Part shown: positions 1 through 43,555 of the stretch, one piece after another | Layout of the letters: every line of letters starts with the position of its first letter | How positions within the stretch are numbered: position 1 is the first letter of the stretch | From: Whitmania pigra | Taxonomy: Eukaryota > Annelida > Clitellata > Hirudinida > Haemopidae | Assembly: GCA_021613335.1 (NCBI GenBank) | Contig: JAJTWR010000269.1 | Span: 957,001 to 1,021,000, forward strand | DNA: 64,000 nt | Direction: 5' to 3' | Made by a program: the position numbers and the translations under genes | Notes under the pieces: model-generated | Databases searched by the model: none | What the model saw: the letters and a program-made list of their open reading frames with translations, nothing else | Told to the model about the DNA's origin: nothing

Positions 1-667
1 GAATTGTTCCGAGCACATACATCTGAAATTAAGACCATAGCATACAGACTCCGTCCAATATATATAGAAAGGGCATGTATTATGCAAAATTATCGAACAT
101 AAAACACATAAATTTATTCAAAGTTTGACATTCATCACTTTATCATATATTAAACACCTTGTTAAATGTGGACTTTCTAGAGAAATTAAAACTTAAAAAT
201 GTGTTTAGCTATGTCGATTAACTGATTTGATGTTTGCTTACTCATTTGGTCTAACACATATGCCCCTTCCCGAGCAATTACTTCTTTCATCACAACTTGC
301 CATAGAACAATCCTGCCCTGACCAACCATTTTTACAAAAACATTTGTCAGGACCGACACAATCACCTCTTCCCAGGCAGTTGTATACTTTTGAACAAGAA
401 TAGTTACTACAACTAGAACCATCCCATCCAGGCGAACATTGACAAACATCTGGAGCAACGCACAATCCGTGCCCTGAACACGAATTGACTCTTTCGCAAG
501 AAAATTCTGATTTATTAAGGAAAGGCTGGTAAATAACTTGTCCAACTGATGGATCTTGATATTTGTCTTTTATTCTGCCTCTGATTTCTGTAATATTAGC
601 TGAACCCCACCAATTCATTGTACAGTTTTGGGACATTTGTGATGGAAAGAGAGCAATGAAATCATAT
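1..667 (-). CDS. Copy L EGF exon and partial laminin-EGF exon
   Basis: Exon 242-667 encodes three EGF-like modules (GHGLCVAPDVCQC, GRGDCVGPDKCFC, GRGICVRPNE) and differs from copy R exon 28 by only a few residues. The next exon starts at 22 and is cut by the window edge. Its visible codons, CMCSEQF, match copy R (27788-27906). Confidence 0.85.
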
Positions 668-3600
668 CTGAAATGTAAACAAAACATTACAAAAATAATT
701 TCGACGCCCAAAAATGATGTTGACTAACATGGTAAGTGGATTAGAAAATATATTGTAACTAAAATTGGCATCAAGTCCCGATGCGATGACAGAATCTGTT
801 GGAAAATTATTAAAAAACGTATTCGATGAGAACTCCAGTTTATAAAACTTGGCTTTAAGAGATTTTGCTTCATCAAAGGAACTCCAAATCTTAACAACAT
901 GCTTCCCTCCGTTACTGAGGAAACTATTTTGAGAAACGGAAACATTTGCTAATGGCCAATCGTAAGATATAAGATTGTATGTGAAAACATATTCAACAGC
1001 TGACATCTGAAAGAAATTGAACCAATTACATAATCAGACGGATTTCAAGATCATGTTAACATTTACCTTATCATTTATATTTCTGTCAACAATATTACTT
1101 GCAAACTTGTTTCTATAAATTTTAACATCTGTACCGTACATATTTTGCATGGTTACAGGAGTTTTCGAAATGTTTCTGAATTGATTTTCTTGCAGAATAA
1201 CGATTTGCTTGTCATACCATCCATTCCACGATTTAGATATCTTTACCGCAGGCTGGACATTTTCTTCAAAAACATTTTCGTTAATTAAAAGTATATTTGC
1301 ACCATTAACGTCCAAATTAATCCCAGTTGCGTCTAGATTTTGTGCTCTGGTTTCTTGCAAATCTTTATAATAACATCTTGAAATTTCAATGTGTCCACTT
1401 TTTGATATCGATCCTTTAATTGCATAGCGATTGTTTATAAAAGAACTATCTTTTATGATAATGGTGAAATTTGGTCGACTATTGTACTCCAGAAGAATAG
1501 CTTCGTTGTTATCCAAAAACATGCTGTTAACAATCCTGGTGTCATTCATGGTAAGTGGCATCCTGATTGCTCTCTCACATCTAAATTGTTTATTTTTAAA
1601 TTTGCAATAATATATTATATTTAATAAAAACATCACTAATCGCAAGTAATTTGAATACTTTTTAAAAGTAGAATTTGTTATTGTGATCATAGCATAATCA
1701 TAGTTTATATCTGGATGCAGTTTATTCCAGGTTAATCCACTGTACACTCCGTTGAAAGAGCAATTATTTATTCCAGCATCGTTGGAATATATCACAACAG
1801 AGGTTTTTACGTTGAAAGTTATGTTTGACAGCTCCAATTTGCTTGAGTTAAATTTGATTTCATCACTTTCCAGAACCGCATTAACCATGGAAATAGTAAC
1901 TGCATGGAGTTAATCACCAACTATTAAAAGAATGGTTTTTTAGTTGAAGTAAATTCAAATATTTGATACTACCGGATTCATTTGTGTAAAAGTCCATCTT
2001 TTTGGTATTGGCTACATTTATAAATTGTCCATCCACTGAGTTTATTTCCATTATACCTAATTAATCGTATCGAATATTCAACTTATTAGCCAAAATAATA
2101 ATAAAGCTGATTAAAGAAATGTTACCATATGCAACTATTCCTCTGCCCGTCGCAAATTCAATATTTGTTCCAGGTTCTATGCTGAGAGTAACATTAGCAC
2201 TGCAAAAATAGTTTTTATCATAGAATGTATTAGTTATTATTGGTCTAATACCCGGAATGTTAATGTGAATTAATTGTCCAAACTCACGGTATGAGTATAG
2301 AATTTTGAAAAATGTATTTGCTTGTTGCGTTTGGAATTGTGAATGAAAATGTCACTTCTCCTCCAGTCGCTTTGAAAAAATATGTGCTTTCTGATGTCGG
2401 CCTCTTAAGGATTGTTTCAGAATTGTTCTGCACATATATTGCTGGCCATATATTTACTGGCAACTTGGAAGCATCGTTATAAAAACAATAGATTCTAAAA
2501 GAAAAATCATTGTAATTTATAACAAAAATACTTTAGAGAAATAGGCTTCAAGATATACTTTGACAAAATTCTGGCATAATCTCCTAAAATCCATTTATTC
2601 ATAGAAAGATCCAGCATTTTGTAAGAGGATGTGTCCCAGTTTGTGTTAACATAAACATCGTACTCTGATTCTGGATTGAAGAAGCTGTTGTTGGTAATAT
2701 TTGCTTTTAAATCATCGTTGTAGTTGCTAATAGTAAGCGTTCTCAGATTTGACCAATAAACTTTGTATGTGATGTTCATGAAGAGATTATTTTTGACAGA
2801 AAAACTGGCAATGTTGTACAGGTTCAGAATTTCCCTGAATCTGCTGTTAGTGATGGTATTATTTTCAAACTGAAAATATTTAATTGAATGATCTGAATTT
2901 TTAATAATGTTCTTAATTAGTGCTAATTTTAATTATTTCACTCACTGAAAATGACATTCCATAGCGATTAATCAGAAGTACATCATATGTTATGTTATCA
3001 AATATATTTTCAATTAATGATGCATTAATATAGTTGAAGTCGAGTAAGTTATAATCATTATTATTAAACTCTCTCGAGTTTATAAATTTATTTCCCAATA
3101 TTTCAACCAAGAAACATCCTCGACAAACTCCATTATTTAAGGTTACGACAGATTCTGCGATCGTTGAAAAAAATGTGTTTGCCACAATCGTAAAGTTAGA
3201 AGATGATGATCCAACATTTAAATTTGCATATAATGCTGATTTTTTGAAATTCCTAAAATTGCATTTCGATATATTTAAGGATCCAGCTCCATTCCACCAT
3301 ACACATCCTTGGTTGCAATTCTCAAATTGACATTCTCCAATCAAAACCTTCAATTGTCTTGTATTCCCAACAAGATCAAGGTTTATGGCATTACCACCAC
3401 TATTTGAAATTGACAATCCACTTAAAATTACAGGTGTTTCCCCATCAAAGAATCCTCTAAAGTGTACTCCATGAGAAGATGTGTCAGTAATTTCAATGTC
3501 TAAGAGTTTAGGAGGAACTCCCTTTATAAAAAGTCCTTTGTCAGCATTTATAATTTTCACATTTTGCAATATTGAAGATTCGGAATCCCCATTAGATAAC

Positions 3601-6600
3601 CCTAAAAAAGAAGTAGGTGTTAAGAACTTTTATTTTGATTTTACGTATTTAAAATGTACCAGTATCTCTTATTTTACGTGTGCTTCGTGGATTTAAGTTT
3701 ATAATTTTGAAGGAATACATTGCATCATCAGTTGTGTTTGTCGGTTCAACAGCAGAAGTGCTGAGTGTGTTATTATTTTCAATTAAGTACAAAGGCTGTG
3801 AGGCCATTCTGATGTAGAAATATTCTGATGATGCTTTGCTAATCCTTACAAATGAAGAATCAGCCACAAAAGTGCTTGGATTTCTGTTGTTAATTGCCAA
3901 ATCCAAAACTATATCACTCTTATATAATCTGTTCAAAAAACGGTTGAATTAAAAAAAATTCATTTAAAATAACATGTAAGACCGAATTTAAATAAGATTA
4001 AGATAATTCAATGTATTACCTTAAATACCATCCCGGACGTTTTAGAGGCTTAATAGAAAAACAATCAGATTCTCCACTGTAACATGGAGAGATTTGTTCA
4101 AACATCCCATCTTCATCATTTAGCAGATCATTCACCAATTGCAAAGTATTATTTATTTCATTAAAAGAAAGCCGTTTCCCTGATTTCGATTGTAATTTCA
4201 CGTAGTTTTCTGAAATTTAAATATTTTATTGTGTTTTGTACATTTTACATCAATGCATGTTAAATTTTTACATTAAAAACTATTTTATTTTCAGTTCTGT
4301 AATATCAGTTCACCTGATTCTGTGACCGCTTGGCGACACGTAATGTTGTAGAACGTGTAAGTCATTTGAGACTCTGTTATGTAGCATTCTTGCAGTGAAA
4401 ACTCATTATTTTGAGTGCATTGAATTTGAACGCTTGGAGTTGAGCTATTATTGCAAGGAAGTATTTTTGCTTTATCATCCGATGACAGAGAGCTAAATAA
4501 ATAAACATTGGGTAAACAAATTTATTACGGTCGTAATTATAGAAAATGTGTGAAACTTTGATTATAAATTTTCTATATACAGACTTGCACTGAAATTTTG
4601 CTTGTGATATGGATTCTTTAAATCCAGCTTGTCTGCAAAGAACATCAGATGTTGCTTTATCATATGAATATTCAAATAATGATATAGTCTTCCAAACTCC
4701 GTTATGCAAAATTTGCCACCATCCAAAATCTAATTTCTTTAATGAATCTGTTTATTTTGATGAACACAATTAATAACTGCTCTATCTCAAAAGGAGCATT
4801 TCATGAAATTGCAATGCAACAGAAAACATACATGAGATTGGTATTTGAAAATTTAGACCTTTCCATCTTTTATTAGCATCTCTTGAGTTAAATGTGATAT
4901 AATTTGTTTCATTGCCTCTTGCAACCAATGTGCCTTTAAAGCAAAAGTATCATCATTTAGAAAACGATTAAATGTTATTTTAATTCGTGTAAACTAACCT
5001 TGTATGTTCATTCCGACAGAAACAAAGTTTAACTGCACTCCCGGTTCTATTGTCATCTTCAAACCGGTAGGTATAGTAATATCTTCAGTGACCAAATAAG
5101 CACTTTCTTTGTTGTGAAGCACCACATCTTGAGTTAGGGTTCCTCCTATTTCACCACTGGGTTTAATAAATCCTTCTGACCTGAATACCATCCTCGTCAT
5201 AGTGGAATCATTGTACCATGGATCAACTCTCACTTTCATGAGTGTTCTATCATTTGTTTCGTCATAAACTCTCACATTTGGATCATTCACATTCTTTCCC
5301 CAAAAATTCCTCGTAAAATACATCAGTTGAGGGACATCATTACTTGTGCTGCCTAGGACTTTCATTTCATATAATGAATTTGGATTGTTTAAAATATTTT
5401 TCTCTGAAGTCAAGCCAATACAGTCAGTAAGGATGGTGTTTGTAACACTGTTATTTCTGAATGTATTGTTTTTCAAATATACAGCTGATAAGTATTTATA
5501 TGTAGTAAAGATAACATAATTAAAACAGCTCAGTTTAACAACTGACGATTGTCCGGATCCAATAACATTTTCATAATCATTATTTGATATCAAAACTTCA
5601 TCATTTGTTGGATAGTGAACTCCTATCAATTTTACGTCAAGAAAACTCTTATCTTGTTTTAAAACGGAGTTAAAATAATTATCTGTTATGGCAAATTTCG
5701 TAAAATACACTATGGAAATTTGTATTTCTCCTCTGAGAAACTTATTGCCTGTTATGATGAGTGAGTTGTTGATAGACTTAAATCCCGCTGTAAACATTAT
5801 TGCATAGTTTTTGCATTCAAAAACGTTGTCCAAAAGTGTTACTTCATTAGGAGCTCCGTTATCTCCAAACCACAAACAACCGGAATCTGAGGTCAAATTG
5901 CTCTCTTTAATGACTATGTGGGAATTGTAGACATTCATCATACTGAAGTCGTTCTTTTCGTCCAAATGTGTCAAGTTGATGTTAGTTGAAGTTATTTGCA
6001 GAGACGAATTGACAAGTTCGAGAACTGGTGATGCTTTCATGATATTAACGCTTGACAAGGAAGAACCTTCAGAAAAATAAATCTTATTAAAATTTTGTTT
6101 TTTCCTTTATATTAAAACAATAATTTAAGCAGAATAATGTCATAATTTAACTCACAGTTGCTATTAATAAATTTGATGCCGTTCCACAAAGCTTTACCAC
6201 TCGTTAAAGTTACTTCGGAAGCTTTTAAGCAGCCTGAACAAATGCAATTATAATTAATATATTTGCATATGTTTATTAATATAACTACAATTAATAATAG
6301 CAGATTCATTCTTAATACCTTCTACTACAATTCCTATTCCAACTAGAAATTCCAAACAGATCGGACCCTTAATTTCTAAGGATGACCCTTTCGGAATAAA
6401 AATGCTCTTTTTTGCTGTTAGATTTGCTGACGTTGACAGCGTGAAGTTTCCATTCAGGCGACCTAGGATTATTATGTTTTCAGTTATTTAATAGGTAATT
6501 AATATAATACTCACCTGCATTAGTAATGAAATAACCCGGGAGTCCGCAAATAAGTAAGTTAACTAATAACTTTATTAGAGCAAATTTTCAGTTAACGGAA

Positions 6601-9600
6601 CTGAATAATAGAAGTTAAGTGTTTAAGGATTGAGGTACTTAAGGATGCAAATGGATATTTGGGCTTCTAAGTTGTCTGATTCTCGCTGTTTGTCAGGTGA
6701 TTATCGAGAATGCTTTTTTGTAGCAGAAATAGATACCACGTGCCCGAAAAAGATGCCAAATATAATTAAATATAAATTTATTAATATTAATTAATATTTA
6801 TTAATATATTAATTAATTATTAATTAATTTCCAAAAATCTATGTTTACAACAGTAACTTGCCTCCGACGGTGCTGTTATTTTGCGACCACAATTGAAAAT
6901 TTTGGCTGTCCACGATTTCATTAAAACGCTCATCTTTAAAATATGTTAACATCTCGATGAATGATTTCGAGGAATCTCTGTAGAAATCAAAGATTCTACT
7001 GCTAATGTTGTCAATGTCATCCACTCCCCAATAGTTATCGCTTGCAAGGATTGAGTAATTGGAACTTCGTATTATGTTGTTCGATATTTCGTATTTCGAT
7101 TGAAAATTCTTGAATATATTCTTTGAAAGAATAATGTTCGAAAAACTCTGGAGATCAAAATTTACGACGTTTCCAACTAAATTATCCAAAAAAGTGTTTG
7201 TTAGCATATTTATGCTCGTGATTTGGTGACCTGAAAAATATATGCATCCATCTCCGGTATTATTTTCAAATTTGGAAGAGTTTATCTGGATAGTGCTATC
7301 GATGATGTCCACATTAATTCTCAGTGAATAACCAGATGTATTTGTAAATGTGCATCCCGATATGATGAGGTTTTTGCATCGAGATTCTATTGATATTCCA
7401 GTCTTTTCACGTAGATCTCTGACAGTTGAATTCAGAATCTGCAGTGAGTAACCGCTTGAGTAGTAGGAGGAGAATCTTATTGAACTACTTGAAAACACAG
7501 ATGACACTACTGAATAGAGTGGTTCTGTTTCGCAATATTGATAAGCGAATATGGCATGCTCTCGATGATTTGAAAAATTGGATCTCAATACTGTAAAGTT
7601 CATTTTGGTATTCATGCAATCCGATGCATGATATATCCCATAGCTATTGTCTCTGAAAAGAGATTCGACGAACATGAAATTTGTAGAAATTGCATTTGGA
7701 ATGGGTAAATATGTAAGGCTGACTCCAACTTCATTCTCGATAAATTGTGATGATTCAACTCTTAAAGATCCTGCTCGCGGAGTTTCTATTCCGTTCTGAA
7801 CAAAATATATAATAAACTTATGTCAAATATTTTCAGAAAATACATCAGAATTAATAAATGATATTGTAATATTTAGAAAATGTTTTGATAACTTATAATA
7901 ATATATTACAAATATAAATTATATATAATTAATTTGAAATCTAATAACCATTTATATTAAAGGGTAACGTACCAAATTTTGGTAAAATACGCAATCTCTG
8001 ATGATATTGTTTTCGTTGATGCTTGTCATTTTAAGACCACTCTTGCTATTTGAAATTTTCAAATTGTTAATGTCAATGTTCTTTAATCCAGTCGTCATAC
8101 CAGCTCCAACGATAGTAATATGTTTTAATGAAGAGATTTTGCATCCTTTAACATAGATATTTTAATTTCATTAATAAGAATTTCTAAATAAAATGTAATC
8201 GACTGAACCTATTGAATCAGAGTTTATAAATATTCCATTCCAGAATGACTCATCATTATTGAAAGGATTCTTCCATAAGCCCATATGGCTAAGAATGTTG
8301 TTTGTTAAGAATTTAACTTCTATTCCTTGCAATCCCTTAAGTTCCAAACATCCTAAAATGTTCACAGATGTGTCTAAAGCTATCACTTGAAATGCATTTC
8401 AAAATTGGCGATGTAATAGCATATATTTAATTAACATATGTAACATATCAGATCTCCACTTTATGTTTCGTTATCATATACTAAATGTGCATGAATAACA
8501 ATGAAGTTAGTGCGTAATTCTATATATTATTTGGCATAAAATGTATGTGGCCTTAAGGTATGGACAAAAACTTCAATTGGTATTACCGTAGACGGTCAAA
8601 GACGAGAGTGGTTGAGTAAAGATGACCTTGACACCTGCTTCAATCGTTAGAAAGACTCCAGAAGGTATTGTTATTGGGGAATTGATTATATACGGACTCC
8701 TATCTAGGCCCCAGTAAGTGTTAAACTAAAATTTTGATTAAATAATATATAAGATATTGATTTAAGCTATTAACGGTTTAATAACATAACATAACATAAC
8801 ATTATTAAGAATGGTTAAGACGAACTAGATCACTGGTAACAACCAGTGTTCTTAATCTGTCCATATATTTAATATTCTAAATTTTAATATATTTTTTAAC
8901 ATAAAAATTTTTAAATGCAATTAATTAAGCGATCAAATGCTTACATTGATTGTTGTTACTTCCGTAACCGGCGGAATGTTTGTAGGGGAAACACATCCGA
9001 ACAATTCAATCCTGAGAGTTGGAACATTTGAGAACGAAACAGGAATTATGGCAATCCTTGATGCCTGTTATAATGAAAACATATTTAATGTCATTACATT
9101 TTACTGGTTCATTGTCATTTAGAGAATGACTTACAATAAAGGGGTATTTTATATAGGCTACAGAAATGTCATAGCCTCCGTGATTTCCATAAAATTCCGT
9201 GGCGCTGTTTGGATCATCTTTGTTTTCCGTGTAGTATTCCCATTGGTATCCCTCCAGTGAATAGAGAATTTTGAATCTTTTAATAAAATAATAATTTGTT
9301 CCCTGGATGTGGATCTTTGTAATGAAATGAGGAGTTAGGAGATTCACAGACAGGTAAGCATATTCAGGGTAACTCGAGGATGCTCTCCAGAAGTCTAAAA
9401 ATCGGAAAATTTTTTTATAAAAACGACTTAATTGTTTGTAAAATTTGAATCGTCAGAATTCAATAAAGAACATGATGGAAGGAGACAATATCGATCTCAA
9501 ATATCTTTGATGGCAGGAAATAACTGATTTTGTTTAAATTTTCAACGTGTCGCCAGGAACAGACAAAAATGCGATTATATTGCAAATTTAAAATCAGTTA

Positions 9601-12600
9601 AAAGTATGACTCACTGGCATTTGTTTGATTCAATCTTGCATATTTTGCTATATTAGATTGATCCATAAACGTTGGTGCAAATATTTGATCATCTGAAATT
9701 CTCCCGTCTCCCATGCCTAATGGTGATGAGCAGTTTGCAGGTGGTTCTGATCCTTAAAACAATAATGGAATACTGAGTGTTAAACGCTTCGAAAATCAAT
9801 GCCTATCTAATTGTGTCATCTAATAAAATAGCCACCACATTTAGGAAGATCGCAAAACTCCCAGTTTCCATTATTCTGATCAGTATAGCACCATGGAATG
9901 TCTTGATGACAATCTGGAGGGTCGACTGGGTTCCGGCAGTAATTGTGAGAAAACGTCGAATTCACATCAGTTATTCCCTGGTGAATATTTATAAAAGTTT
10001 GCTCCTTCAAATTCAAGGATTATTTGACTTGATAATGTAGCTTCGTAACAATGACGTTTAAACACATACAGATTAATATGATGCCATTAGGCGATGACTT
10101 TTCACTGAATTTTAGTTTGAATTATGATACTGTTTAGCTTGATTCAGCATTGCTAATGAGTCAAAAAAACTTCTTTGAAACGTCCAACATTCCAAGCTCA
10201 ATCACCTTAAGTCTTAAAACTATGGCATAACAAAATCATCAACATGGTAAGTTCACTGAGGAGGTTAAATTTTTTCTAAACAATTATTGAATATTCCCAT
10301 AAGAATCGTTAATTAATTTATTTGCCACAAAAATAAAAATAAAATTATTTCATTGTCATTAAAAAGCCCAATAACTCGTAACATAATATTTTGTCGAATA
10401 ATAGGCATTGAATAATAAACGTGGTTTCGGAATAATTAAGTTTATATTGCTAATGTAACTAAATTTATATTTAATTTATGTGCTATAAAACGTATCTCGG
10501 TAATCACCTGACTTGACAATCTATGAGAGTCCAAACAACTTAGAAGCCAAAATATCCATTCGCGTTCTTAAGTACCTCAAATCCTTCCGTTATTTATTTC
10601 AGTTAACTGAATACTTGCTCTAATAAACTTATTAGTTAACTTGCTAATTCGGGGGCTATTATTTCAATATTTATACATATTTAAAGTCACAATAGCATGA
10701 ATAATGCATGAGTGATGTCACTTCATTCATATTTGCTTGGCAACCAGTTTTATAAAAAAATATTTAAATACTTAAGTAAAAATACAAGTAACACCTCTCA
10801 AATTTTTAAAATAGAAGTTTTTTGTTTAAAGATGGACTTAAGTAAAAGTAAAACGTAGCAACATTTAAAAGTTACTTTAAAAGTCAAAAGTAAAAGTACT
10901 GATGTCGGTTTTGATCTTAGATATTTCCATGTTTAAATGTTACTGTACTTGAGCATCAGTTGTTAAAAGTACCAACTGTTAGTAATAACAGTTATTACGT
11001 AATTATGCAATAACATTCGCACTAATGAAAGTTATTATTCTTTATTTTTCTTCATTCAATGTACAATCACAAATTAGTCACCAATGCTTGTTAACTTTCA
11101 ACATAACCAAGTCCTCAAACACTAGGACGGATCTAGAACACTTTGGCGGGGCCACATACTGAGACCAGTGGGCAGATTTAGGTGATTTTAGCTACTAAAC
11201 TTTTTGTCGAAAGTTGTAAATTATTGAAATAATTTTTAAAAAATTAAATTAAAATATATTATTTTTAATTATAATTTTTTTATTAATTTTTATTTAATAA
11301 ATTAAATGGATTTACTTAATTTTTTCTTATATTTTCCGAATGACGGAGAGGGCCGTGGTCTCCCGCCTCCTTTATATCCGCCATGCTCAGGCAGTTTATC
11401 ATCCATTTTAGCTCGACGGCTGCTCACTGTCAGACCGGCACAGCTGAATAAACGTTCGACAGCTGCACAAGCTGATAAAGGAGTGTTCAACTGGATCAAC
11501 TGTCGTTGCCTCTTTTTTTAATTTTTTTTACGTGCATTTCTTGTCAACTTTTCGTATTCCGAAGCATGTGCTGGATGCATGTTCCATGTTTTTATTCAAG
11601 TTAGACGGAGAAATTAAAAATGCTGAACGCTTAGTACTCTTTTGTTTGCACAGCAGGCATTTACAACTTGTAAACTTGCAAGTTTTGGCTTCCCTCGATT
11701 CAAAGCTGAACAACGCGATTAAATATGGCCACAGGTGCTATTCATTGTTGTCCTGCTTATCTTCGATATCGATGTTCCAATTGGATTCTCTAATACTATA
11801 TTCACTAATATATATATATATTAATAATTATAATTTATTATTAAAAATAATTAATTAAAGTTTAAAATAACCATAAGACATTTTAATTAATACCTAGTCT
11901 TATTTACGTTATTTTGTAACGCCTTGCGGCGGACAAGTAACGGAGTAAAAGTATCACATTAAAATCAGAAAATATTACTTTGTTGGAAGTAAAAAGTTCC
12001 GAACATTTTCTGTACGTTGTTACAAGTAAATAAAACTACAGCACTGCTTAAGTACAGTAACGCGTTACATTTACTTCGTTACTGCACAACACTGTAACCA
12101 TGTATTGCCAATCAGTTTATTTATTGATTTATTTATAAGAACTCAAGATTTCTCAGACAATTTATAATTCGAGAGTTTATAAACACTTGAGCAATTGGTT
12201 AGCCAAGCAAAATAAATCAAATGGCATTCAGTGCCGGATGTAAGGTTGTTCAAGACGTGCACTGTGCCCCAAACCAATCAAGTAACTTATTCTTCTTCTT
12301 TCTTTTTTTTTTTTGCAAATAGTTTTAAAAAGTTGAAGAAAAGCAGAAAATTATAATGTTAATACTTTAGAAAATTTTGTATCTAAACATGTATTTTGTA
12401 CCGCGGCTTCTGACCGGTTTTTGTCTTCCAGAATCAAATTGTGAATGAATAAACGACCGAAATTGAAAGCATTGCCGTGACAGCATTTATGACCTGTTTG
12501 CCTAAAGCTGACTTTGAAGACATTGAACAATGAGCTATGCATAAATTCTTAGATTCAATCTCCATTCGAGTGTGGGTCATGACCCGTTTCTTGAAAAATG

Positions 12601-15845: not shown

Positions 15846-15874
15846 AAGTCTCAACTCAAACGAAAAGTCAGAAA

Positions 15875-15932
15875 AATCGGCTGACTTCTCAGCAACTGCT
15901 AACCGAAGTTAATTTATGTCGGACTACCTGTT
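15875..15932 (-). promoter_or_regulatory. Putative core promoter of copy L
   Basis: The minus strand reads TAGTCCGACATAAATTAACT and then CGGTTAGCAGTTGCTGAGAA, 30-90 bases upstream of the copy L start codon. It matches the block before copy R over about 60 bases. Confidence 0.5.
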
Positions 15933-16684: not shown

Positions 16685-16745
16685 AAACGTTGACTAACTT
16701 CGCAACAACTGCTAAGCGAAACTATTTTATATCGGACTATATTTC
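16685..16745 (-). promoter_or_regulatory. Orphan third copy of the promoter block
   Basis: The minus strand reads AGTCCGATATAAAATAGTTT and then CGCTTAGCAGTTGTTGCGAA, a diverged copy of the promoter block. It lies 0.85 kb upstream of copy L and just past the 3' end of copy R. No signal-peptide exon follows it directly. It could be an upstream alternative promoter of copy L or the remnant of a third gene copy. Confidence 0.35.
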
Positions 16746-32400: not shown

Positions 32401-35400
32401 AGTTCTACAGTACAAATATTTCCACCTGTGACATCTTGGAGACACGTAAAATTGACAAAAGTGTAAGCCATTTGAGACTCATATATGTAGCATTCTTGCA
32501 GTGAAAACTGATTACTTTGGATGCATTGAATTTGAACGCTTGGAGTGGAACTATTATTGCAAGGAAGTATTCTGGATTTTTCATCATTTGACAGAGAGCT
32601 ATAAAATAAACAATAAATTAAAAATGTTAGGGTTATAATTATTGAAATGAGTTTGAACTACATTTTTACACTATCTAAATACAGACCTGCACTGAATTAT
32701 TTCTTGTGACAAGGATTCCTTAAATCCAGTTTGTTGACAGAGAATATCAGCTGTTGCTTTTTTATAAGAATTATCAAGAATTAAAACAGTTTTCCAAACT
32801 CCGTTGTGCAAAATTTGCCACCCTCCAAAATCCAATTTCTTAAGTGAGTCTGTTTATTTTGATGAACACAATCAATAATTGGATTATACCAAATATTTCC
32901 AGGATGTGGCAATGCAACAGGGAACGTACTTGAGATTGCTTTTTGAAAATTGAGACCCTTCCATCTTTTATTAGCATCTCTTGAGTTAAATGTGATATAA
33001 TCTGTTTCATTACCTTTTGCAACCAAAGTGCCTTTAATGCAAACATATCAACGTATAAAAACACAATAGAATGCTTTTTCAAATCATCTAAACTAACCTT
33101 GAATGATCATTCCACCAGAAACAAAGTTTAACTGCACTCCCGGTTCTATTGTCATCTTCAAACCGGTAGGTATAGTAATATCTTCAGTGACCAAATAAGC
33201 ACTTTCTTTGTTGTAAAGCACCACATTTTGAGTTAGGGTTCCTCCTATTTCACCACTGGGTTTAATAAATCCTTCTGACCTGAACACCATCCTCGTCATA
33301 GTGGAGTCATTGTACCACGGATCAACTCTCACTTTCATGAGTGTTCTATCATTTGTTTCGTCATAAACTCTCACATTTGGATCATTCACATTCTCTCCCC
33401 AAAAATTCCTCGTAAAATACATGAGTTGAGGGACATCATTACTTGTGCTGCCTAACACTTTCATTTCATATAATGAATTTGGATTGTTTAAAATATTTTT
33501 CTCTGAAGTCAAGCCGATACAGTCAGTAAGGATGGTGTTTGTAACGTTGTTATTTATGAATGTGTTGTTCCTAAAATACACAGCTGATACGTAGCTATTA
33601 TATGCTTCTGAAAAACATCTCATTTTAATCACTGACGATACTCCTGATCCAACCACATTTTCATAAACGTTATTTGCTACCAGGACTTCATCGATTCTGA
33701 ATGTTTTGTCGTAGTCTCTAGTCAGCTGTAGATCAAGAAAGCTTTGATCTTTTCTTAAAACTGAGTTAAAGTAATTATTTACTATTATGATTTTCCAAAA
33801 ATATCTGTTGGAAATTTGCAATTCTCCTCCGATAAATTTGTTGTCGGCGATAATAAGAAAATTATAGATTGAATAATATACTGAACTATGTACTATTGCA
33901 AAGTCTCTGCATTTAAAGACGCTATGCGAAATTGTGACGTTGTTTTGGTTATTTCCAAATTTTTCATCAAACTGTAAACAACTTGAATCTGAACTGAAAT
34001 TGCTTTCTTCGATCATAAATATCTGCATCATTAAACAAAATTAACCTTAATTTGTGACAATCAAATTTGCAAAATAATTGTCTTTTGTCAAAATTATGAC
34101 TCTAACTATTTTAGGAGTCATCCATAAAAGACGTCCGCAAAATGTGCCGCGTCTTATCCGCAAATATCCGGATAATGTTCGAAGTACCCCAACAAAAATT
34201 TTGCCAACAAAATTATTTCTCAAAAATTTATGTTAATGATTAACCAATTTTGTTGTTCTGAGAAACAATCCGATTTGTATTTGTATTTAGCCGATTTTTT
34301 GAGTGCTTTATGTATCCGAACAGGATGCAAAGGCACTTCTTGCAGTGTTTTATTAAAGTCGTTTGCATAGCTAGATGATAAGGACGGTGCTCCCGCAACG
34401 GGGTTCGAATCCGCGCTGCCATCGTGAGAGAATAAGTAAGGAAATATTAAAGTAATGGAAATAAAATCGTTTAAAAAATAAATTTGCAAAATTTAAAAAT
34501 TACTTAATTTTTTTAAAGTGCGGATTCCGCAAAAACGGTAGAACAATGAGAAGCAAGACTCAGAAATCGTAACAGGTCAATTCATGGCAGCTTTCAAAGC
34601 GAAAGGACAAATTTATCTCAAAGCCGACCCTTTGCTTCCGTTCCCAGATGGCCAACATAAATTCCCACAAATGTACTTCATCAGCAAGTCGGTATAGCCG
34701 TGGGATATGCCATTTCTCCATCGCTCTTTCTACCAGCCATGCACAATGTTCTGAATGTAGGAATCGAAACAGCGTTCGTCTTAAATAAAAAATAGATCGT
34801 CCAAAGAGTCCTCGATACTCTCAAAGATCTACTCCATTGGTGCAGCACGGCTTTCAAGCTTCTCCCTAACCAAAGGTAAAGTTTTGCAGGGACATGTACT
34901 TCACACTCGGAAAACAGCGCATGCCGACTGTTTCAGAAGAACCGGTAAAGAGCCTTGGAACTGTTTTTGACGATTTGTTTCATGACAAAAACCATGAGGC
35001 AGCCACATTTAGAAGAATATCGGGTAGACTAAATGCAATTGCCAGAACGTTTCTTCGGGGCAGATCAAAAGTCTGGCTTTTACAATTCGTTCTCTTGTCA
35101 AGGCTGCTTTGGCCTCTTAACCATATACGAAATAGAATTATCGTCGATGAAAGAAATGGAGAAGAAAATCAATCGATGCACAGTTTGTAGATTAACATAT
35201 GAAGTAAGATAACATTTTTGATATTAATGCCACCTCTGCAAATTAATTTAAGAATCTAAAATCTACCTACCATACTTCCTGGTAAAAAGTTGCTGTACCC
35301 CTCAAGTGTAGATTTGAAAATTTGGATGAATCCGCTTTTGATTTTGCTACCTATATTTAGCAAATGGCTGGACCTCGATTTCAACGATGTTTCAGTTAAG

Positions 35401-38400
35401 TTGAACTGTAATCGATCAACGTTATCTATAGAGATGCAGTCGTAAGTAGACGTTACGGATGAACTCGCTATTTTCATTATCATATCAACTGAACTTTCCA
35501 CTTGAATGCAATAATCAGAGCATATTATATCAGAATTGTAGACATCCAACATATTGTAGTTGAATCCCCTTATCAAAGCAAATTTTTCAGTGTCGATATT
35601 TGATTCAGTTACTTGTACAGACGAATTGACTATTTCCAAAGAAAGAGATGTATTTGTGATGCTAATATTTGATAGATACGAACCTAGAAATAAAAACTGA
35701 AATTTTCTTTAAAATTATCTCGAAAAATTAAAGACATTTGTATGGTTATTAAAGAGATAAAGAGTATTTGAATATCAAGTAAATTTATCGGATATATAAG
35801 ATACTTTTGAGATAAACTAAAATTATATTGATTAATAACAAACCGTTGCTATTAATGAAAATTAGGCCATTCCATAAAGATTCGGAACTAGATAAAGTGA
35901 CTTCAGCAGCCTTTAAACAACCTTCTGTTAATTAAAATTAATTGTTTTATTAGATTAACAGAGCTCATCCTAAAGTGACGTAGTGAAAATTCCAGAAACA
36001 TCTTATTCTTCATATATAATAGATACTTCTTAGTTATATGAGGTACTTTTAATTATTGATTATTAAATATTAATTGTGAATCATGGGAACTCACCTTCGA
36101 CAAAAATCAATCTCCCTTCTAAGAAGTCTAATTTAATTGGTCCTTTGATTTCCAAGCACAACCCTTTTGGAATAAAGATGTTTTTTATCACAGTTAAGTT
36201 TTGTGAATGTGACAAAGTGATGTTGCCGTCCAAACGACCTGAGGATAATATATTACCAGGTTATATGTTTTCATTTAGAATTGGAATAATTTAAAAAGTT
36301 CTTATAACTTGCCTCCGACGGTGCCGTTATTTTGCGACCACAATTGAAAGTTTTGGCTGTCCACGATTTCATTAAAACGCTCATCTTTAAAATATGTTAA
36401 CATCTCGACGAATGATTTCGAGGAATCTCTGTAGAAATCAAAGATTCTGCTGCTAATATTTTCAATGTCATCCACTCCCCAATAGTTATCGCTTGCAAGG
36501 ATTGAGTAATTGGAACTTCGTATTATGTTGTTCGATATTTCGTATTTCGATTGGAAATTCTTGAATATGTTCTTTGAAAGAATAATGTTCGAAAAACTCG
36601 GGAGATCAAAATTTATGACGTTTCCAACTAAATTATTCAAAAAAGTGTTTGTTAGCATATTTATGCTCGTGATTTGTTGACCTGAAAAATATATGCATCC
36701 ATCTCCGGTATTATTTTCAAATTTGGAAGAGTTTATCTGGATAGCGCTATCTATGATGTCCACATTAGTTCTCAGTGAATAACCAGATATATTTGTAAAT
36801 GTGCATCCCGATATGATGAGATTTTTGCATCGAGATTCTATTGATATTCCAGTCTTTCCATGCAGATCTCTGACAGTTGAATTCAGAATTTGCAGCGAGT
36901 AATCCCCTGAGTAGTAGGAGGAGAATCTTATTGAACTACTTGAAAACACAGATGACACTACTGAATAGAGTAGTTCTGTTTCGCAATATTGATAAGCGAA
37001 TATGGCATGCTCTCGGTGATTTGAAAAATTGGATCTCAATACAGTAAAGTTCATTTTGGTATTCATGCAATCCGATCCAAGATTTATCCCATAGCTATTG
37101 TATCGGAAAAGAGATTCGACGAACATGAAATTTGTGGAAATTTTATTTGGAATGGATAAATATTTAAGGCTGATTCCAACTTCATTCTCGATAAATTGTG
37201 ATGATTCAACTCTTAAAGATCCTGCTCGCGGAGTCTCTATTCCGTTCTGAACAAAATATATATTAAACTTATGTCAAATATTTTCAGAAAATACATCAGA
37301 ATTAACAAATGATATTGTAATATTTAGAAGATGTTTTGATAACTTACAGTGCTAGAAATATTGTTACGATATGTCCACTTTTCATGGATAATTTCCTTAC
37401 AAATTAACATATCTTGATGAAATTTTCAGCGATTACGTAAAGCACCATTTGTAAGCATCGTGCAAAATTTCCTTTCATATGGGTTAATGGTTCCCGTAAA
37501 TTATGCAAAAGAACCATTTTTGGCCTGGAAATATTATTACGACAGTTTCCGGTTTGGACTCGTTTCATCAATTTCAAAGTCTCATAAGAAGGATCAAACA
37601 TTAAATTGTCATTAAGAAGGCTATGTAAAGGAGTGTGAAATTCAAAACTTCCTTTTACATTCATTTCATCACGGGAAAGAAAGCAGGTTTGACAGAAGGA
37701 GAAAGGGGACAAGTTAAGACCTTGGGGAAGGCAAACTATTCAATAAAAAAGATTGCAAATGAGTTGAATAGGTCAAGAACTGTCATGAAATGTTTTTTGG
37801 ATGATCCAGACTCATATGGGAAGAAGTACAAGGGTGGAAGACCGAAAAAACTCTCGAATCAGATTCAGAGACGCCTCATCAGGGAGGCTTCACAAGGAGA
37901 ATATTCGTATAAACAGCTAAAAGATAAGCTGGATTTGGATGTCCATGTTAGGACAGTATGCAATTATCTTAATTCAAGTGGACAGCAGAGATACGAAATG
38001 CGAAAGCGAGCTCCAGCGTTGAAAGTCCATCACAAGAATAAACGTCTCTTCTGGGCCAAAGAGATGGTCAGCTACAACGAAAGATGGGAACGCGTAATTT
38101 TCACAGAAGAAAAAAAAATTTAACCTTGATGGGCCAGACGGCTATAAATACTACTGGCATGACCTCAGAAAAGAAAGAGAGGTTTGTTATAGCAGAAAAC
38201 ACGGAGGAGGCTCTGTGATGGTCTGGGGAGGAATTTCAGCATTTGGGAGGACTGAACTGGTGATTTTGAAAGGGAGGCAGGACTCTCAGAGGTACATCTA
38301 AATGCTCAAGGATCATCTCCTTCCTTTTTCTGAAGCAAAACAACATGAATTTCAGCAAGATAATGCCCCTAGTCATGTTTCCAAGGCAGCCAGAGCATAT

Positions 38401-41400
38401 TTCCAGGAGTCCAACATGCAAGTGATGGACTGGCCGGCGTGTTCACCCGGCTTGAACCTGATTGAAAATGTCTGGGGCCTTCTTTTAAGATCAGTTTATG
38501 GCAATGGACAGCAATATAACACAGAAAATTATTTGAAAGAAGCGATTTGGAGCGCCTGGAGAAATTTGGATGAAAACATCATCAAAACACTGATTTTCTC
38601 CATGAAAAATAAGTGCATAGATGTTATTTCTAAAAAAGGAGGAATGACATTTTATTGAAACATTATTTCATTTAGTTTTAAATAAACATTTTTGCCAAAA
38701 TACTGAAATTCATGAGTTTATTTGTAACCTGTCGTAACAATATTTCTATGCAAAAAAATGGATTTGTGAGGAATTTGTGCTTAATTCTTGATCAAAGTGA
38801 AAAAAAATATACGAGTTATGTTCTTTAAGTATATTACACAGTTCTTCTAAATTTGAGTTTCGTATGATAATTTAAACTTAAGTTATTACAAAAAATGGGG
38901 GCTGTCGTAACATTTTTTCTAGCACTGTATGTATAGTTTGGAAATATAATTGTCAATATTAATTTTAAATCTAATAACCATTTATATTAAAGCATCACAA
39001 GGTAACATACCAAATTTTGGCGAAATACGCAATCTCTGATGACATTGTTTTCGTTGATGCTTGTCATTTTAAGAGCACTCTTGCTATTTGAAATTTTCAG
39101 ATTTTCAAATTCAATGTTATTAGTTCCAGTCGTTATACCAGCTCCAACGATAATAACATTCTTTAACGAAGAAATTTTGCAACCTTCAAAATATATATTT
39201 GTATTGTTATTATCACAATTTAGATCTATACATTATTTATATACATAACTTATACATTTACATAAAATGTAATCTGTTGAACCTGCTGAATCAGGGTTGA
39301 TAAAAATTCCTTTCCAGAATGATTCATCATTATTGAAAGGATTCTTCCATAAACCCATGTGACTGAGAATGTTGCTGGTTAAGAATTTTACTTCTAATCC
39401 TTTTATTCCTCTAAGTTCCAAACAACCTGAAATAACATTTCCTCATTCACATGTTTAACGATAAAATTTGTTTTGACTTAAAGTGCATTTTAAATTTATT
39501 GATATTATGTTGGGACATAGTTACGTGTACTAAGATTATGATATTCCAGTATTTTGGTTTGGTTTAATTATCATAAACCTCTCGTAACGATATTAGTCTT
39601 CAAAGTTATGTTTCGTCTCCACTTACTTATTTTGAGGACAGGAATTACTTTAAAAATTCGCAAGAAATCGTTGTTACTTTAAAATGTAGAAAAACATTTT
39701 GTGGTACCGTAGACGATTAGAGATGAGGTTGGATGAGTAAAGACGACCTTGACACCAGCTTCAATTGTTAAAAGGACACCTGGCGGTATTGTTGTTGGCG
39801 CGTTGATTATGTATGGACTCCTATCCAGCCCCCAGTAAGTGTTAGACTACAAATTTTGTTTAAAAAAAACTATAATTGATATTGATGGTTAATAATTATT
39901 GGTTTGTTAATTATTGGTTTGTTAGTATAAAATATAAACATTACATAAAAGCTATTAAGAATATCAAGTCGTTGAGCTATAAAATACTTACATCGACTGT
40001 GGTTACTTCCTCAGACAGCGGAATACTCATAGGGGAAACACATCCGAACAATTCAATTCTGAGAGCTGGAACATATGAGAATGACACAGGAATTAGGGCA
40101 ATCTTTGATGCCTTTTAAGATGAAAACATATTTAATGTCATTACAGTCGACTAAGCTGCTTAACTAATTTCGAAAATGACTTACAATAAATGGAAATTTT
40201 ATATAGGCTATCGAAATGTCATAGCCTGCGTGATTTCCTTCAAATTCTCTGGCGCTGTTTGGATCATCTTTTTTTTCTGTGTAGTATTCCCATTGGTATC
40301 CGTCCAGTGAATAGAAAATTTTGAATCTTTTAATGAAATAATAATTTGTTCCCTGGATGTGGATCTTTGTAATGAAATGAGGAGTTCGGAGATTCACAGA
40401 CAGGTAAGCATATTGAGGATAACTCCAGGATGCTCTCCAGAAGTCTAAAAGGCAAAATTTGAGAGCCGAAAATAACCGTTTTTGTAAAAAATTGTACTTA
40501 AAAATTTTTATAAAATAACTTAAATGATTATGTGATTTGAAGAGTCATAATTAAATGACGGTAGCAGAGGACGGGAAATAACTAATTTTATTTTAATTGT
40601 CAAAGTGTTGCCACGTACCGACATAAAGTGCGATTATATTACAAATTTAAACTCAGTTAACAGTAGAACTCACTGGCATTTGTTTGATTCAATCTTGCGT
40701 ATTTGGCTGTATTAGATTGATCTGGTGCAAATATTTGATCATCTGAAATTCTCCCGTCTCCCATGCCTAATGGTGATGAGCAGTTTGCAGGTGGTTCTGA
40801 TCCTGAAATAGACATCAATTCTTGAATATTGAATGTTAAACATTTAACAAACTAATGTCTCATCTAGCAAACAAACTCACCACATTTAGGAAGATCGCAA
40901 TACTCCCAATTGCCATTATTCTGATCAGTATAGCACCATGGAAGATCTTGATGACAATCTGAAGGGTCGACTGGATTCCGGCAATAATTGTGAGAAAACG
41001 TCGAATTTAAATCAGTTATTCCCTGGCAATTATTTATTAAAATTTTTATTGCTTCACGTTCATTTGTTCATTGAAATTAGTGAGTATGATCATGGAGTAA
41101 GAAATAATTTAAGTTTCTGCTACAACAATATATTTGATTTTGGTGAAAACTTCTCGAAACTGATTGCGACCCAAATCAAGATATTAGGCATTACACTTGG
41201 GTGATCATTTGACCTGATATTATTGCTTCGCAACAATAAAATGTAACCACATATTGTTGATTAATATGATGCCATTTGGCGATGACTTCACTGAACTTCG
41301 GGTGTACATTATGTTTAGTTTGATTCGATAATACTAAATTAGGAATGCTAATGTGTGTGTTACTTTTGAAGCTTCTAACCTTATTAGCTCAATCATCTTA

Positions 41401-42296
41401 AGTCTAAAACCTATGGGCGGTTATATGATCAAATCATGTTGATGATTTTTTCAAAACAAATAATTTATTTTTAATATTTTTCCCTTACGGATCGTTAATT
41501 ACAAAGTTATTTATTTATTTACAACCACAAGAATATAAATAAAATTATTTTATTGTCTTAAACATTTCAATAACTCGTAGCATCTCGAGTCTTGTCAAAT
41601 AATATTTTTAAATGTTTACAGTCACAGTAGAATGAATAACTGTAAGTTTATTTAGTGATTGCTTTGTAAGAACTCAAGATTTCTAGAATAATTGTGAATT
41701 CAAGAAGTTTCTAAACACTTAAGCATATGGTTACCTATTGGTGTTGCCTATAATTAGGCACAAAAATAGAATAGTGTTGAAACACCCACACAAAAATTAA
41801 GCGATTTAAACGATGTAATAGCTTTGTCATGACAGATTTCAGAGAGCATATTACAGATTCAATGCAAGGTAGTTCGTAAACGTAAACGATTTATTTTGAA
41901 TGAAATTCTGCATTTTAATTTCTCACTTTGAAGCATTTGTTGTCGGATCTCCAGGGGTAGCAGGCCTTTCCAGTGTTTGTGACGTTTCTCTTTCCGGAAT
42001 ATGTTCCGTCGTCTGTTGAACACTCTCCATCGAACATCTGACATATTCCTGCAATATTTTTGCAAATATTTAAAAACCTGCAAACACAGATACTTTGCAG
42101 TACATATTGTTTTAGTAAGGAAGTTTCGCTGTTGCTCAAGATGAACAAAAGCTATATAAAAAATATGCTTAAAATAAAACAGATTAAGTTGTAAGGAAAT
42201 TACATATAATTGACTTATTATTTAAAATATCTTACCAGGTTGTTGCACAAAGATGCAAATAATACAAAAACTGATCAGCAATGTTTTGGACTTCAT
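16947..42296 (-). CDS. Giant mosaic cell-surface protein, copy R (complete gene span)
   Basis: About 57 exons give roughly 4,900 codons. Exons were placed by splice consensus, phase and comparison with copy L. Order from the N-terminus: signal peptide, kringle, F5/8C domain, beta-helix-like repeats, SRCR-like domain, second beta-helix block, three EGF modules, laminin-type EGF, IPT/TIG, long beta-rich region, cadherin repeats, Thr/Ser stalk, hydrophobic tail. This looks like an extracellular adhesion or recognition protein. Beta-helix plus SRCR recalls the insect septate-junction protein Bark beetle/Anakonda, but kringle, discoidin and cadherin modules differ, so no symbol is given. Two breaks are visible: the exon-21 donor reads AT instead of GT (30410-30409), and a repeat interrupts a cadherin exon (18102-18411). 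It may be a pseudogene, or functional with unusual splicing. Confidence 0.8.
18102..18411. mobile_element. Short dispersed repeat inserted in a cadherin exon of copy R
   Basis: It starts GAAATAACCCGGG on the plus strand and ends AAAATCTAAGTTTACAAC. It is about 85-90% identical to 6530-6850, and a diverged inverted copy lies at about 10430-10685. It encodes no protein and is probably a MITE or other non-autonomous element. Joining the sequence on either side restores the cadherin frame (TALYY then ILEGNDNG). Confidence 0.7.
20527..26519 (-). CDS. Copy R exons 33-51: long extracellular beta-rich region with Gly-rich insert
   Basis: Exons: 26209-26519, 25908-26019, 25616-25795, 25414-25549, 25110-25276, 24789-25048, 24570-24727, 24269-24381, 24231-24250, 23920-24163, 23475-23611, 23117-23391, 22807-23014, 22569-22739, 22159-22453, 22021-22086, 21753-21966, 21388-21666, 21004-21306, 20527-20756. 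All phases agree if the 20-base micro-exon is included. Several stretches such as EVLITNIGLKAATNVKPILP and AVQLKITNHGLIAAKRL resemble CARDB/APHP-type adhesive beta-sandwiches; this is a pattern judgement only. A glycine-rich run (GSGGGTGGSNGG) and a basic ERKKRSA motif, a possible furin-type cleavage site, lie in the middle. The matching part of copy L is outside the window. Confidence 0.68.
26584..28553 (-). CDS. Copy R exons 28-32: EGF modules, laminin-type EGF, IPT/TIG
   Basis: Exons: 28128-28553, 27788-27906, 27514-27706, 27297-27432, 26584-26802; all in phase. Exon 28 has three EGF-like modules with GHGLCVAPDVCQC, GRGDCVGPDKCFC and GRGICVRPNE signatures. Exon 29 is a laminin-EGF-like cysteine cluster (CSECKSGRWGDNCALCPIC). 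Exons 30-31 hold an IPT/TIG immunoglobulin-like fold (FPTSGPDVGGTVIYVLG, then LSDDKISCISP). Exon 32 adds a further EGF-like segment (CSMGECNCFVPWTGSDCD). Exon 28 is almost identical to the same exon in copy L (242-667). Confidence 0.85.
28612..31475 (-). CDS. Copy R exons 20-27: second beta-helix-like block
   Basis: Exons: 30829-31475, 30411-30748, 30167-30373, 30012-30085, 29859-29942, 29515-29770, 28952-29465, 28612-28889. Repeats are again Asn-rich coils (SLNISKSIFRNF, ANITNNSFFNAESEYDVYV, TLSIEPGTNIEF). The exon 21 boundary is abnormal. Copy L reads an AA|gtatttt donor there, whereas copy R reads AA|atatttt, so the exon would read through to a stop a few codons later. If the site were spliced as in copy L, the frame would run cleanly into exon 22. 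All other junctions have usable donors and acceptors. Confidence 0.75.
31534..33031 (-). CDS. Copy R exons 15-19: SRCR-like domain and AbfB/beta-trefoil-like segment
   Basis: Exons: 32930-33031, 32687-32849, 32426-32598, 31891-32080, 31534-31802; all in phase. Exons 15-17 read as a group-A/B-like scavenger receptor cysteine-rich domain: GGWQILHNGVWKTV, then ADILCQQTGF and a C-terminal half with LPCNNSS, QIQCIQSNQFSLQECYI and FTCLQDV. Exons 18-19 contain VKLQSKSGKWLSF, PLKRPGWYLR, DSSFVRINKASSEYSYIRL and SKSLYLIENNNTL. Their spacing resembles ricin/AbfB-like beta-trefoil repeats that hold extended glycans, but this second assignment is weak. An inverted-repeat MITE lies in the exon 17-18 intron and is absent from copy L. 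Confidence 0.7.
32158..32366. mobile_element. Inverted-repeat MITE in a copy R intron
   Basis: A roughly 40-base imperfect terminal inverted repeat flanks an AT-rich centre. The left arm starts GGTGACCCGTCAAAATAGCC; the right arm ends GATATTATGACGGGGTGCC. Both arms contain GCGACAAAAT. It is absent from the equivalent intron of copy L (4210-4313). Confidence 0.7.
33098..39846 (-). CDS. Copy R exons 7-14: first parallel beta-helix-like block
   Basis: Exons: 39708-39846, 39262-39426, 39011-39183, 36313-37246, 36095-36238, 35844-35924, 35271-35683, 33098-34022; all in phase. The protein is rich in Asn, Ser and Ile with recurring turns such as NTFxNN, SKFENNTGDGCIYF and ISGCTFTN, the pattern of right-handed parallel beta-helix (PbH1) repeats. 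Entry motifs recur: SNTYWGLDRSPYI, NTVGG-type and GEIGGTLTQDVVL, each followed by an LTIEAGVKVVF or MTIEPGVQLNF strand. The intron after exon 10 uses a GC donor. A Tc1 element sits in the exon 9-10 intron; non-LTR and SINE-like debris sits in the exon 13-14 intron. Exon 13 carries about 85 residues with no counterpart in copy L. Confidence 0.8.
34330..34430. repeat. Possible tRNA-derived SINE fragment
   Basis: It contains GGGGTTCGAATCC, a good RNA polymerase III B-box, with a TAGCTAGATGATAAGG A-box-like segment 34 bases upstream. The flanks cannot form a tRNA acceptor stem, so a SINE remnant is more likely than a tRNA gene. Confidence 0.3.
34560..35190 (+). pseudogene. Non-LTR reverse transcriptase fragment
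   Basis: A degenerate plus-strand coding remnant. The open part at 34894-35190 reads EEPVKSLGTVFDD, FRRISGRLNAIARTFLRGRS and KVWLLQFVLLSRLLWPLNHI. This resembles the thumb/C-terminal region of invertebrate non-LTR retrotransposon RTs. An upstream piece (YAISPSLFLPAMHNVL) resembles the RT segment after the catalytic motif. Frameshifts separate them. It lies antisense in the exon 13-14 intron of copy R. Confidence 0.6.
37347..38927 (+). mobile_element. Tc1/mariner transposon in a copy R intron
   Basis: It is 1,581 bp with terminal inverted repeats starting CAGTGCTAGAAA and ending TTTCTAGCACTG, flanked by TA on both sides. It lies antisense in the exon 9-10 intron. Copy L lacks it in the otherwise alignable intron (7796-7972), so it inserted after the duplication. 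Confidence 0.92.
37635..38658 (+). pseudogene. Tc1-family transposase, frameshifted
   Basis: The N-terminal part (37635-38123) has a helix-turn-helix (SIKKIANELNRSRTVMKCFL) and the linker GRPKKLS. The frame is lost in an A-run near 38113, just before the first catalytic Asp (NLDGPDGYKYYW). The second Asp is in QDNAPSH and the Glu is in NLIENVWG, 34 residues later: a DD34E triad. A TAA stop interrupts the middle at about 38298. The element is therefore not autonomous. Confidence 0.9.
39992..42296 (-). CDS. Copy R exons 1-6: signal peptide, kringle, F5/8C domain
   Basis: Exons: 42236-42296, 41927-42048, 40881-41022, 40674-40802, 40185-40444, 39992-40111; all phases match. Exon 1 encodes MKSKTLLISFCIICIFVQQP, a clear signal peptide, and fixes the start. 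Exons 2-3 form one kringle split by a 0.9-kb intron: a CSTDDGTYSG start, GKACYPW, then HNYCRNP, DLPWCYTD and WEYCDLPKC. Exons 4-6 form an F5/8-type C (discoidin) domain, with the NFWRASWSYPQYAYLSVNL core, FKIFYSLDGYQWEYY and the terminal LRIELFGC. These modules usually bind lysine-rich proteins, glycans or phospholipids; the ligand here is unknown. Confidence 0.88.

Positions 42297-42774: not shown

Positions 42775-43555
<781 letters not shown>

What the first reader, a model, noticed from the sequence alone, without database searches (positions are those of the whole stretch)
1..42296. Tandem pair of giant mosaic surface proteins with an unusual domain order
One polypeptide combines kringle, F5/8C, two beta-helix-like blocks, SRCR, EGF, IPT/TIG, cadherin repeats and a probable GPI tail. 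Single parts are common in animals, but I do not recall this order in a named family. Bark beetle/Anakonda shares only the beta-helix and SRCR theme. A duplicated, fast-diverging recognition or adhesion system is plausible.
Basis: partly seen in the sequence, partly recalled or inferred. Interest (0 to 1): 0.75.

Follow-up and report, generated by a model that had tools for sequence, protein, structure and literature searches.

The report
Giant leech surface protein, three copies
The window holds most of a tandem cluster of very large, multi-domain cell-surface genes in what is probably a leech; a closely similar part list occurs, unnamed and apparently unstudied, in other animals including a lamprey, and its stalk contains a block that bacteria also use.

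Summary
Minus-strand exons in 42.1k-16.9k encode one ~4,600-residue protein (copy A): kringle, F5/8C, beta-helix, SRCR-like insert, beta-helix, EGF, IPT/TIG, CARDB/Ig-like block, seven cadherins, Ser/Thr-rich segment, GPI-type tail. It is not a pair: B and C follow in tandem, partly outside the window. A relic and a shorter paralogue lie nearby. The SRCR is degenerate. The cadherin exon of copy A is interrupted by an LTR-like repeat in this assembly.

The order is not unique. Helobdella robusta P0002 is collinear over nearly its whole length. Lamprey P0057 has kringle, an F5/8C-like stretch (by alignment), beta-helix, EGF, the block and a GPI-like tail. Molluscs, a brachiopod, a horseshoe crab and a hemichordate share much of it. 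I found no name or paper for it.

The least expected part is a ~380-residue Ig-like module without a Pfam call, 34-44% identical to 80 loci from bacterial genomes.

Best reading: a long membrane-tethered adhesion/recognition rod. New member of an old, unnamed family; interest moderate.

The parts
40881..42048 (-). Copy A: kringle, exons about 42048-41927 and 41022-40881; first-exon start and signal peptide not found
   Evidence: Pfam Kringle 3.1e-11; matching exons in B and C
39992..40802 (-). Copy A: F5/8C (discoidin) domain, exons 40802-40674, 40444-40185 and one ending at 39992 (start about 40102, uncertain)
   Evidence: Pfam 8.3e-11; last exon
32930..39846 (-). Copy A: first right-handed beta-helix block; exon 37246-36313 has a GC donor
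   Evidence: Pfam Beta_helix 8.2e-11; exons; B and C
32426..32849 (-). Copy A: degenerate SRCR-like insert in the beta-helix
   Evidence: not called by Pfam; local alignment to the Haliotis SRCR region, raw score 71, and to Helobdella, raw score 338 over a longer stretch; same insertion point
31534..32080 (-). Copy A: about 150-residue insert seen in A and Helobdella only, 2 of 9 aligned proteins; fold unassigned
   Evidence: alignment; no Pfam match
28440..31475 (-). Copy A: second beta-helix block, ends near the NWWG motif (end approximate)
   Evidence: Pfam Beta_helix 8.2e-10 when scanned alone; exons, B and C
27297..28440 (-). Copy A: EGF repeats, then IPT/TIG
   Evidence: Pfam EGF_TEN 3.5e-18, TIG 5.7e-10
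23920..26802 (-). Copy A: EGF, Ig-like, CARDB-like and CarboxypepD_reg-like segment
   Evidence: CarboxypepD_reg 6.9e-4, below its cut-off; blastp to P0017, P0019, P0021, of which P0017 and P0021 have CARDB calls
20527..22391 (-). Copy A: region holding the ~380-residue Ig-like module shared with bacteria, no Pfam call
   Evidence: exons between 23920 and 22391 only partly resolved
17290..20453 (-). Copy A: seven cadherin repeats
   Evidence: Pfam Cadherin 9.3e-86, 7 stretches
18104..18412 (.). LTR-like repeat inside the cadherin exon of copy A; brings an in-frame stop
   Evidence: absent at this site in B and C; 39 other near-full-length matches among the scored
16947..17224 (-). Copy A: Ser/Thr-rich segment and hydrophobic C-terminus, probable GPI signal
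1..15614 (-). Copy B: 5' part, kringle to EGF, continues left of the window to about -10342

Best explanation
A leech member of an old, unnamed animal family of giant rod-shaped cell-surface proteins. The N-terminal kringle and F5/8C domains form a binding head. Two beta-helix blocks with an SRCR-like insert form a stiff rod. EGF, TIG, CARDB/Ig-like and cadherin repeats form a long stalk. The hydrophobic C-terminus is replaced by a GPI anchor. The protein would work as an adhesion or recognition receptor reaching out from the cell, with the first beta-helix changing faster than the stalk. Shown here: domain order, copy number, homologues and the pattern of constraint. Inferred: exposure at the surface, GPI processing, calcium-stiffened cadherins, ligand binding.
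For: Domain calls; tail. Collinear Helobdella protein with a signal-like N-terminus. GPI-like tails in P0006, P0008, P0010, P0012 and lamprey P0057, and membrane-spanning tails in P0001, P0007, P0009 (read by eye), so tethering is common but its type varies. dN/dS 0.38-0.39 shows coding constraint. All-beta, Ig-like module fold in the part that is well predicted.
Against: No expression, ligand, localisation or structure of the whole protein. Signal-peptide exon not found. In this assembly the cadherin exon of copy A is interrupted, so A may be truncated and unanchored. The C-terminus of copy C is less hydrophobic (highest 15-residue mean 1.8, against 2.9 in A and 2.6 in B). P0002, P0004 and P0005 as annotated end without a hydrophobic tail. 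Such domain mixes also occur in secreted matrix proteins (general knowledge).
Confidence: 0.6

Rival explanations
1. A secreted or matrix-bound structural protein (mucus, cuticle, barrier) rather than a receptor.
For: Repeat-rich architecture; bacterial relatives of the block look like giant exoproteins; copy A lacks an uninterrupted path to its tail; P0002, P0004 and P0005 as annotated end without a hydrophobic tail.
Against: Hydrophobic C-termini in A and B and several homologues; the tail-less models may be incomplete.
Confidence: 0.25
2. A Bark beetle/Anakonda-type junction protein.
For: Beta-helix plus SRCR theme; amphioxus P0051 lists beta-helix, SRCR, EGF and cadherin.
Against: Bark is a type I transmembrane protein with three SRCR/beta-helix repeats, CUB and C-type lectin (PMC13042304, passages); A has one degenerate SRCR, no CUB or C-type lectin call, and a GPI-type tail. 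Drosophila Bark itself was never compared.
Confidence: 0.07
3. The blocks are separate genes wrongly spliced together here.
For: No RNA; splice sites chosen by script and by hand; a few exons unresolved between 23920 and 22391.
Against: Same order in separately annotated proteins P0002, P0004, P0010 and P0057, which are themselves predictions; exons conserved in three copies.
Confidence: 0.08

Closest known systems
Helobdella robusta HELRODRAFT_176894 (P0002, 4650 aa)
   Same: Collinear: A 18-2773 at 33%, 2774-3232 at 42%, 3285-4517 at 46% identity; kringle-like N-terminus by alignment, degenerate SRCR and the leech-type insert
   Different: No tail in the annotated model; Pfam called no Kringle, Beta_helix or SRCR in it at E <= 0.01 and 3 cadherin stretches
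Lampetra planeri LOC144733868 (P0057, 4317 aa)
   Same: Kringle 167-245, then a discoidin-like stretch (alignment only), beta-helix, EGF and the CARDB/module block, GPI-like tail
   Different: A DDR-type discoidin domain before the kringle; no F5/8C, SRCR, TIG or Cadherin called at E <= 0.01
Lingula P0004, Tachypleus P0005, Haliotis P0010, Mytilus P0012, Saccoglossus P0001
   Same: F5/8C region, beta-helix, EGF, TIG and the CARDB/module block, by precomputed Pfam or alignment
   Different: No PF00051 in their precomputed lists; strong SRCR in Haliotis; Cadherin listed for P0001, P0004, P0005 and P0012, not for P0010
Bark beetle/Anakonda (Drosophila)
   Same: SRCR and beta-helix (PMC8006247, table passage)
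   Different: Triple repeat, CUB, C-type lectin, transmembrane (PMC13042304, passages)
Bacterial CARDB exoproteins (Verrucomicrobiota, Planctomycetota, Cyanobacteria, Desulfobacterales among others)
   Same: ~380-residue module; in P0017 and P0021 also CARDB and CarboxypepD_reg
   Different: No kringle or F5/8C in the Pfam scans of the two unnamed proteins examined, P0017 and P0021

Membership tests
Unnamed kringle/F5/8C-beta-helix-EGF-TIG-block family (P0002, P0057, P0010) | F5/8C followed by beta-helix at the N-terminus | tested here: met
Unnamed kringle/F5/8C-beta-helix-EGF-TIG-block family (P0002, P0057, P0010) | Teneurin-type EGF and TIG followed by the CARDB/module block | tested here: met
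Unnamed kringle/F5/8C-beta-helix-EGF-TIG-block family (P0002, P0057, P0010) | Hydrophobic tethering C-terminus (common, not universal among the annotated members) | tested here: met
   A and B by eye and hydropathy; GPI processing itself not testable; absent from P0002, P0004, P0005 as annotated
Bark beetle/Anakonda | Three SRCR plus beta-helix repeats | tested here: not met
   one SRCR-like stretch, unscored; definition
[quoted passage not shown]
   no Pfam match at E <= 0.1 in A
Bark beetle/Anakonda | Transmembrane helix of a type I membrane protein | tested here: not met
   A and B end in the hydrophobic stretch
Teneurin | NHL, YD-repeat and C-terminal domains (recalled) | tested here: not met
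   of Teneurin models only the EGF ones match
Classical cadherin | Cytoplasmic catenin-binding domain (recalled) | tested here: not met
   Cadherin repeats only; protein ends at the tail
SRCR superfamily | Scorable SRCR domain | tested here: not met
   no Pfam call in A; none of 28 matches of PF00530 in the genome lies in the window

The most novel reading that the evidence does not exclude
An undescribed family of membrane-tethered recognition rods, present in the common ancestor of protostomes and vertebrates and kept in lampreys, whose stalk was taken from bacterial exoproteins (or passed to them) and which leeches, and perhaps abalones, expand into local gene clusters that diversify most in the first beta-helix.
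Probability: 0.3. Interest if true: 0.7.

Novelty: new member of a known kind. Interest (0 to 1): 0.45.

Why it matters
A protein of about 4,600 residues whose domain order is recognisable between leech and lamprey has probably been under selection since early bilaterians, yet I found no name or study for it in the searches named below. A module 34-44% identical between the leech and bacterial genomes raises a testable question about gene transfer. The leech cluster and its shorter paralogue, which lacks the block, give natural material for asking what the head and the stalk each do.

Tried and rejected
Separate genes: rejected on collinear homologues and conserved exons, though no RNA was available.

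Haplotype duplication in the assembly instead of paralogues: rejected because A-B, A-C and B-C differ by dS 0.216, 0.194 and 0.187 overall. One B-C stretch (Ig/CARDB, dS 0.012) looks like gene conversion.

Positive selection: 0 of 30 region-by-pair cells reached dN/dS 1. Left out of that count: two exon pieces with wrong boundaries, one piece without counterpart and the discoidin-end exon; one further piece entered the total only. The tail comparisons with C are unreliable (dS over 1).

Homology to Bark by sequence: the search with the Lingula N-terminal half scored 1203 candidates and gave 3 proteins, one of them the query itself, none Bark; inconclusive.

Direction of transfer of the module. 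(IQ-TREE, 51 rows, midpoint root): 18 animal rows with unnamed P0003 and Symbiodinium P0018 form one clade (100/98). (FastTree, 106 rows, midpoint root): 15 animal-side rows, P0003 and P0018 included, form one clade (0.968) against 91 others. (FastTree, rooted on an arbitrary bacterial row): 23 named animal rows fall in a clade of 112 rows (0.989) with 89 unnamed proteins and 0 of 80 bacterial loci; P0018 and P0060 fall outside. Of 159 proteins 5 had no long enough module match and were dropped there, among them the second Lingula protein P0050, amphioxus P0051 and two molluscan ones (P0056, P0058). The roots are arbitrary, so direction is unresolved.

Species name: an 18S search (RF01960) never got an answer, so 'leech' rests on the Helobdella match.

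Second kringle candidate on C152: no match of the copy A model at E <= 1e-3.

Literature, listings only unless said: 0 papers hold all of kringle, beta-helix, SRCR, cadherin, IPT; one search was for Bark; one search gave 5 papers and one search gave 3, none about this protein by title and abstract start; two searches gave 0. Only open-licence PMC papers are held. Of the two papers opened I saw passages only.
Full report
What the window is. The window is G000:C192:957001-1021000 of a 178 Mb, 381-contig eukaryote genome. The closest named protein found for copy A is Helobdella robusta P0002 (63% identity in the best local segment), so I read it as a leech; the species was not established (18S searches unanswered).

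Gene model. A small gene finder trained on the window's long open frames, then hand curation of splice sites, gives 51 exon pieces for copy A, plus a discoidin-end exon found later, from about 42.05k to 16947 on the minus strand; the working model has 4,604 residues. One intron has a GC donor after 36313. The first exon is incomplete at its 5' end, and exons between 23920 and 22391 are only partly resolved.

Domains. One search gives Kringle, F5/8C, Beta_helix, Teneurin-type EGF, TIG and seven Cadherin stretches; CarboxypepD_reg is below its cut-off. The second beta-helix block was not called within the middle piece scanned, but scanned alone from its first exon it gives Beta_helix 8.2e-10. 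SRCR is not called. The stretch 32849-32426 aligns weakly to the Haliotis SRCR and better to the matching Helobdella stretch. In an alignment of nine proteins an SRCR or its remnant sits at one insertion point in six (copy A, P0002, P0004, P0050, P0010, P0015) and is absent from three (P0005, P0008, P0012); an extra insert of about 150 residues follows it in copy A and P0002 only.

Copies. Self-comparison of 144 kb shows three copies, matching at 76-97% DNA identity piece by piece. In the projection, 50 of 51 exon pieces of A have a match in B and 50 of 51 in C; the missing one is an uncertain Gly-rich piece. Of the 100 projected pieces, 17 are flagged for a changed splice dinucleotide or a stop (two of them the expected terminal stop), several where my boundaries were wrong, and none changes length by other than a multiple of three. 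B differs in part of the first beta-helix. A relic between B and C holds pieces of the kringle exon and of the EGF exon. A fourth gene 0.33 Mb away on the same contig, plus strand (about 1348.2k to 1363.5k), matches A 7-2510 and then 4109-4513, so it lacks everything from TIG to the first cadherins. The module search of the whole genome gave 9 matches, all in the three tandem copies; it scored only 4 candidate stretches.

Insertion in copy A. The cadherin exon that is continuous in B and C is interrupted in A at 18412-18104. A genome search with this DNA had 1,074 first-look candidates, of which 40 were scored; 41 rows are listed, 40 nearly full-length at 99-100% identity including the query itself. 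Among them are eight same-strand pairs 1,560-1,576 bases apart, as for the two ends of a short LTR element; that reading is inferred. A related stretch lies in a B intron at 6852-6524. Without splicing, the A frame would end there; B has no such interruption.

Selection. Nei-Gojobori dN/dS is 0.38 (A-B), 0.39 (A-C) and 0.39 (B-C). The first beta-helix has 0.42, 0.59 and 0.49; Ig/CARDB 0.20 and 0.19 for A-B and A-C, but 0.68 for B-C on only 13 changes; the module region 0.21, 0.33 and 0.24.

Homologues. P0002 is collinear with A; 235 proteins, 120 listed; lamprey P0057 has Kringle at 167-245 (1e-22), a DDR-type discoidin domain before it, beta-helix and EGF. Its kringle, a discoidin-like stretch that Pfam does not call, and its beta-helix start align to about the first 400 residues of leech A at 8e-33. 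Haliotis rufescens has two members on what is, by its length, one contig (P0010, P0011), so local expansion may not be confined to the leech.

Bacterial module. The seven-sequence alignment of bacterial-type and animal modules has 61 invariant columns of 399. Leech A is 33.8-44.5% identical to these 80 loci, median 37.6%; Lingula 37.3-48.2%. Among proteins without an animal name the range is 26-44%. The alignment with P0017 and P0021 continues weakly into the cadherin region (27% of 855 and 29% of 807 columns in all), where those two have no Cadherin call.

Mechanism. Shown: order, copies, constraint, relatives. Inferred: the kringle-F5/8C head and the faster-changing first beta-helix face the outside and bind, the Ig/CARDB and cadherin stalk spaces them from the membrane, and a GPI tail holds the protein. 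A secreted structural role is the main rival; three annotated relatives end without a hydrophobic tail.

Verdict. A real and well-observed feature, larger than described; a new member of an unnamed but widespread family, not a new kind.

Noticed in passing
window 37629-38655 (+): Tc3-like transposase pieces (HTH and DDE_3 Pfam matches) in an intron of copy A
   Followed up: partly
window 57116-61719 (+): Neighbouring open frames with PHD and NSD-type Cys-His (C5HCH) matches, probably an NSD-like histone methyltransferase gene
   Followed up: no
window 42757-43554: About 800 bases of AAT repeat just upstream of copy A
   Followed up: no
window 46355-46603 and 57314-57487: Tandem repeats of 17 bases (14.6 copies) and 25 bases (7 copies)
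   Followed up: no
window 18412-18104: Nearly identical copies of this repeat occur on many contigs, eight listed pairs about 1.56 kb apart
   Followed up: partly
G000:C192, about 1348.2k-1363.5k (L112-L114): Shorter paralogue that jumps from the EGF region to late cadherins
   Followed up: partly
G000:C192: Further F5/8C matches on the same contig, for example near 834-849k and 2069-2080k
   Followed up: no
P0059-P0143: Dozens of proteins without organism name, mostly about 1,700-2,700 residues, carry the module; 89 unnamed proteins group with the animals
   Followed up: partly
P0018 and P0060: A Symbiodinium protein and an unnamed metagenome protein with a membrane-spanning tail share beta-helix, EGF and the block with copy A
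   Followed up: partly
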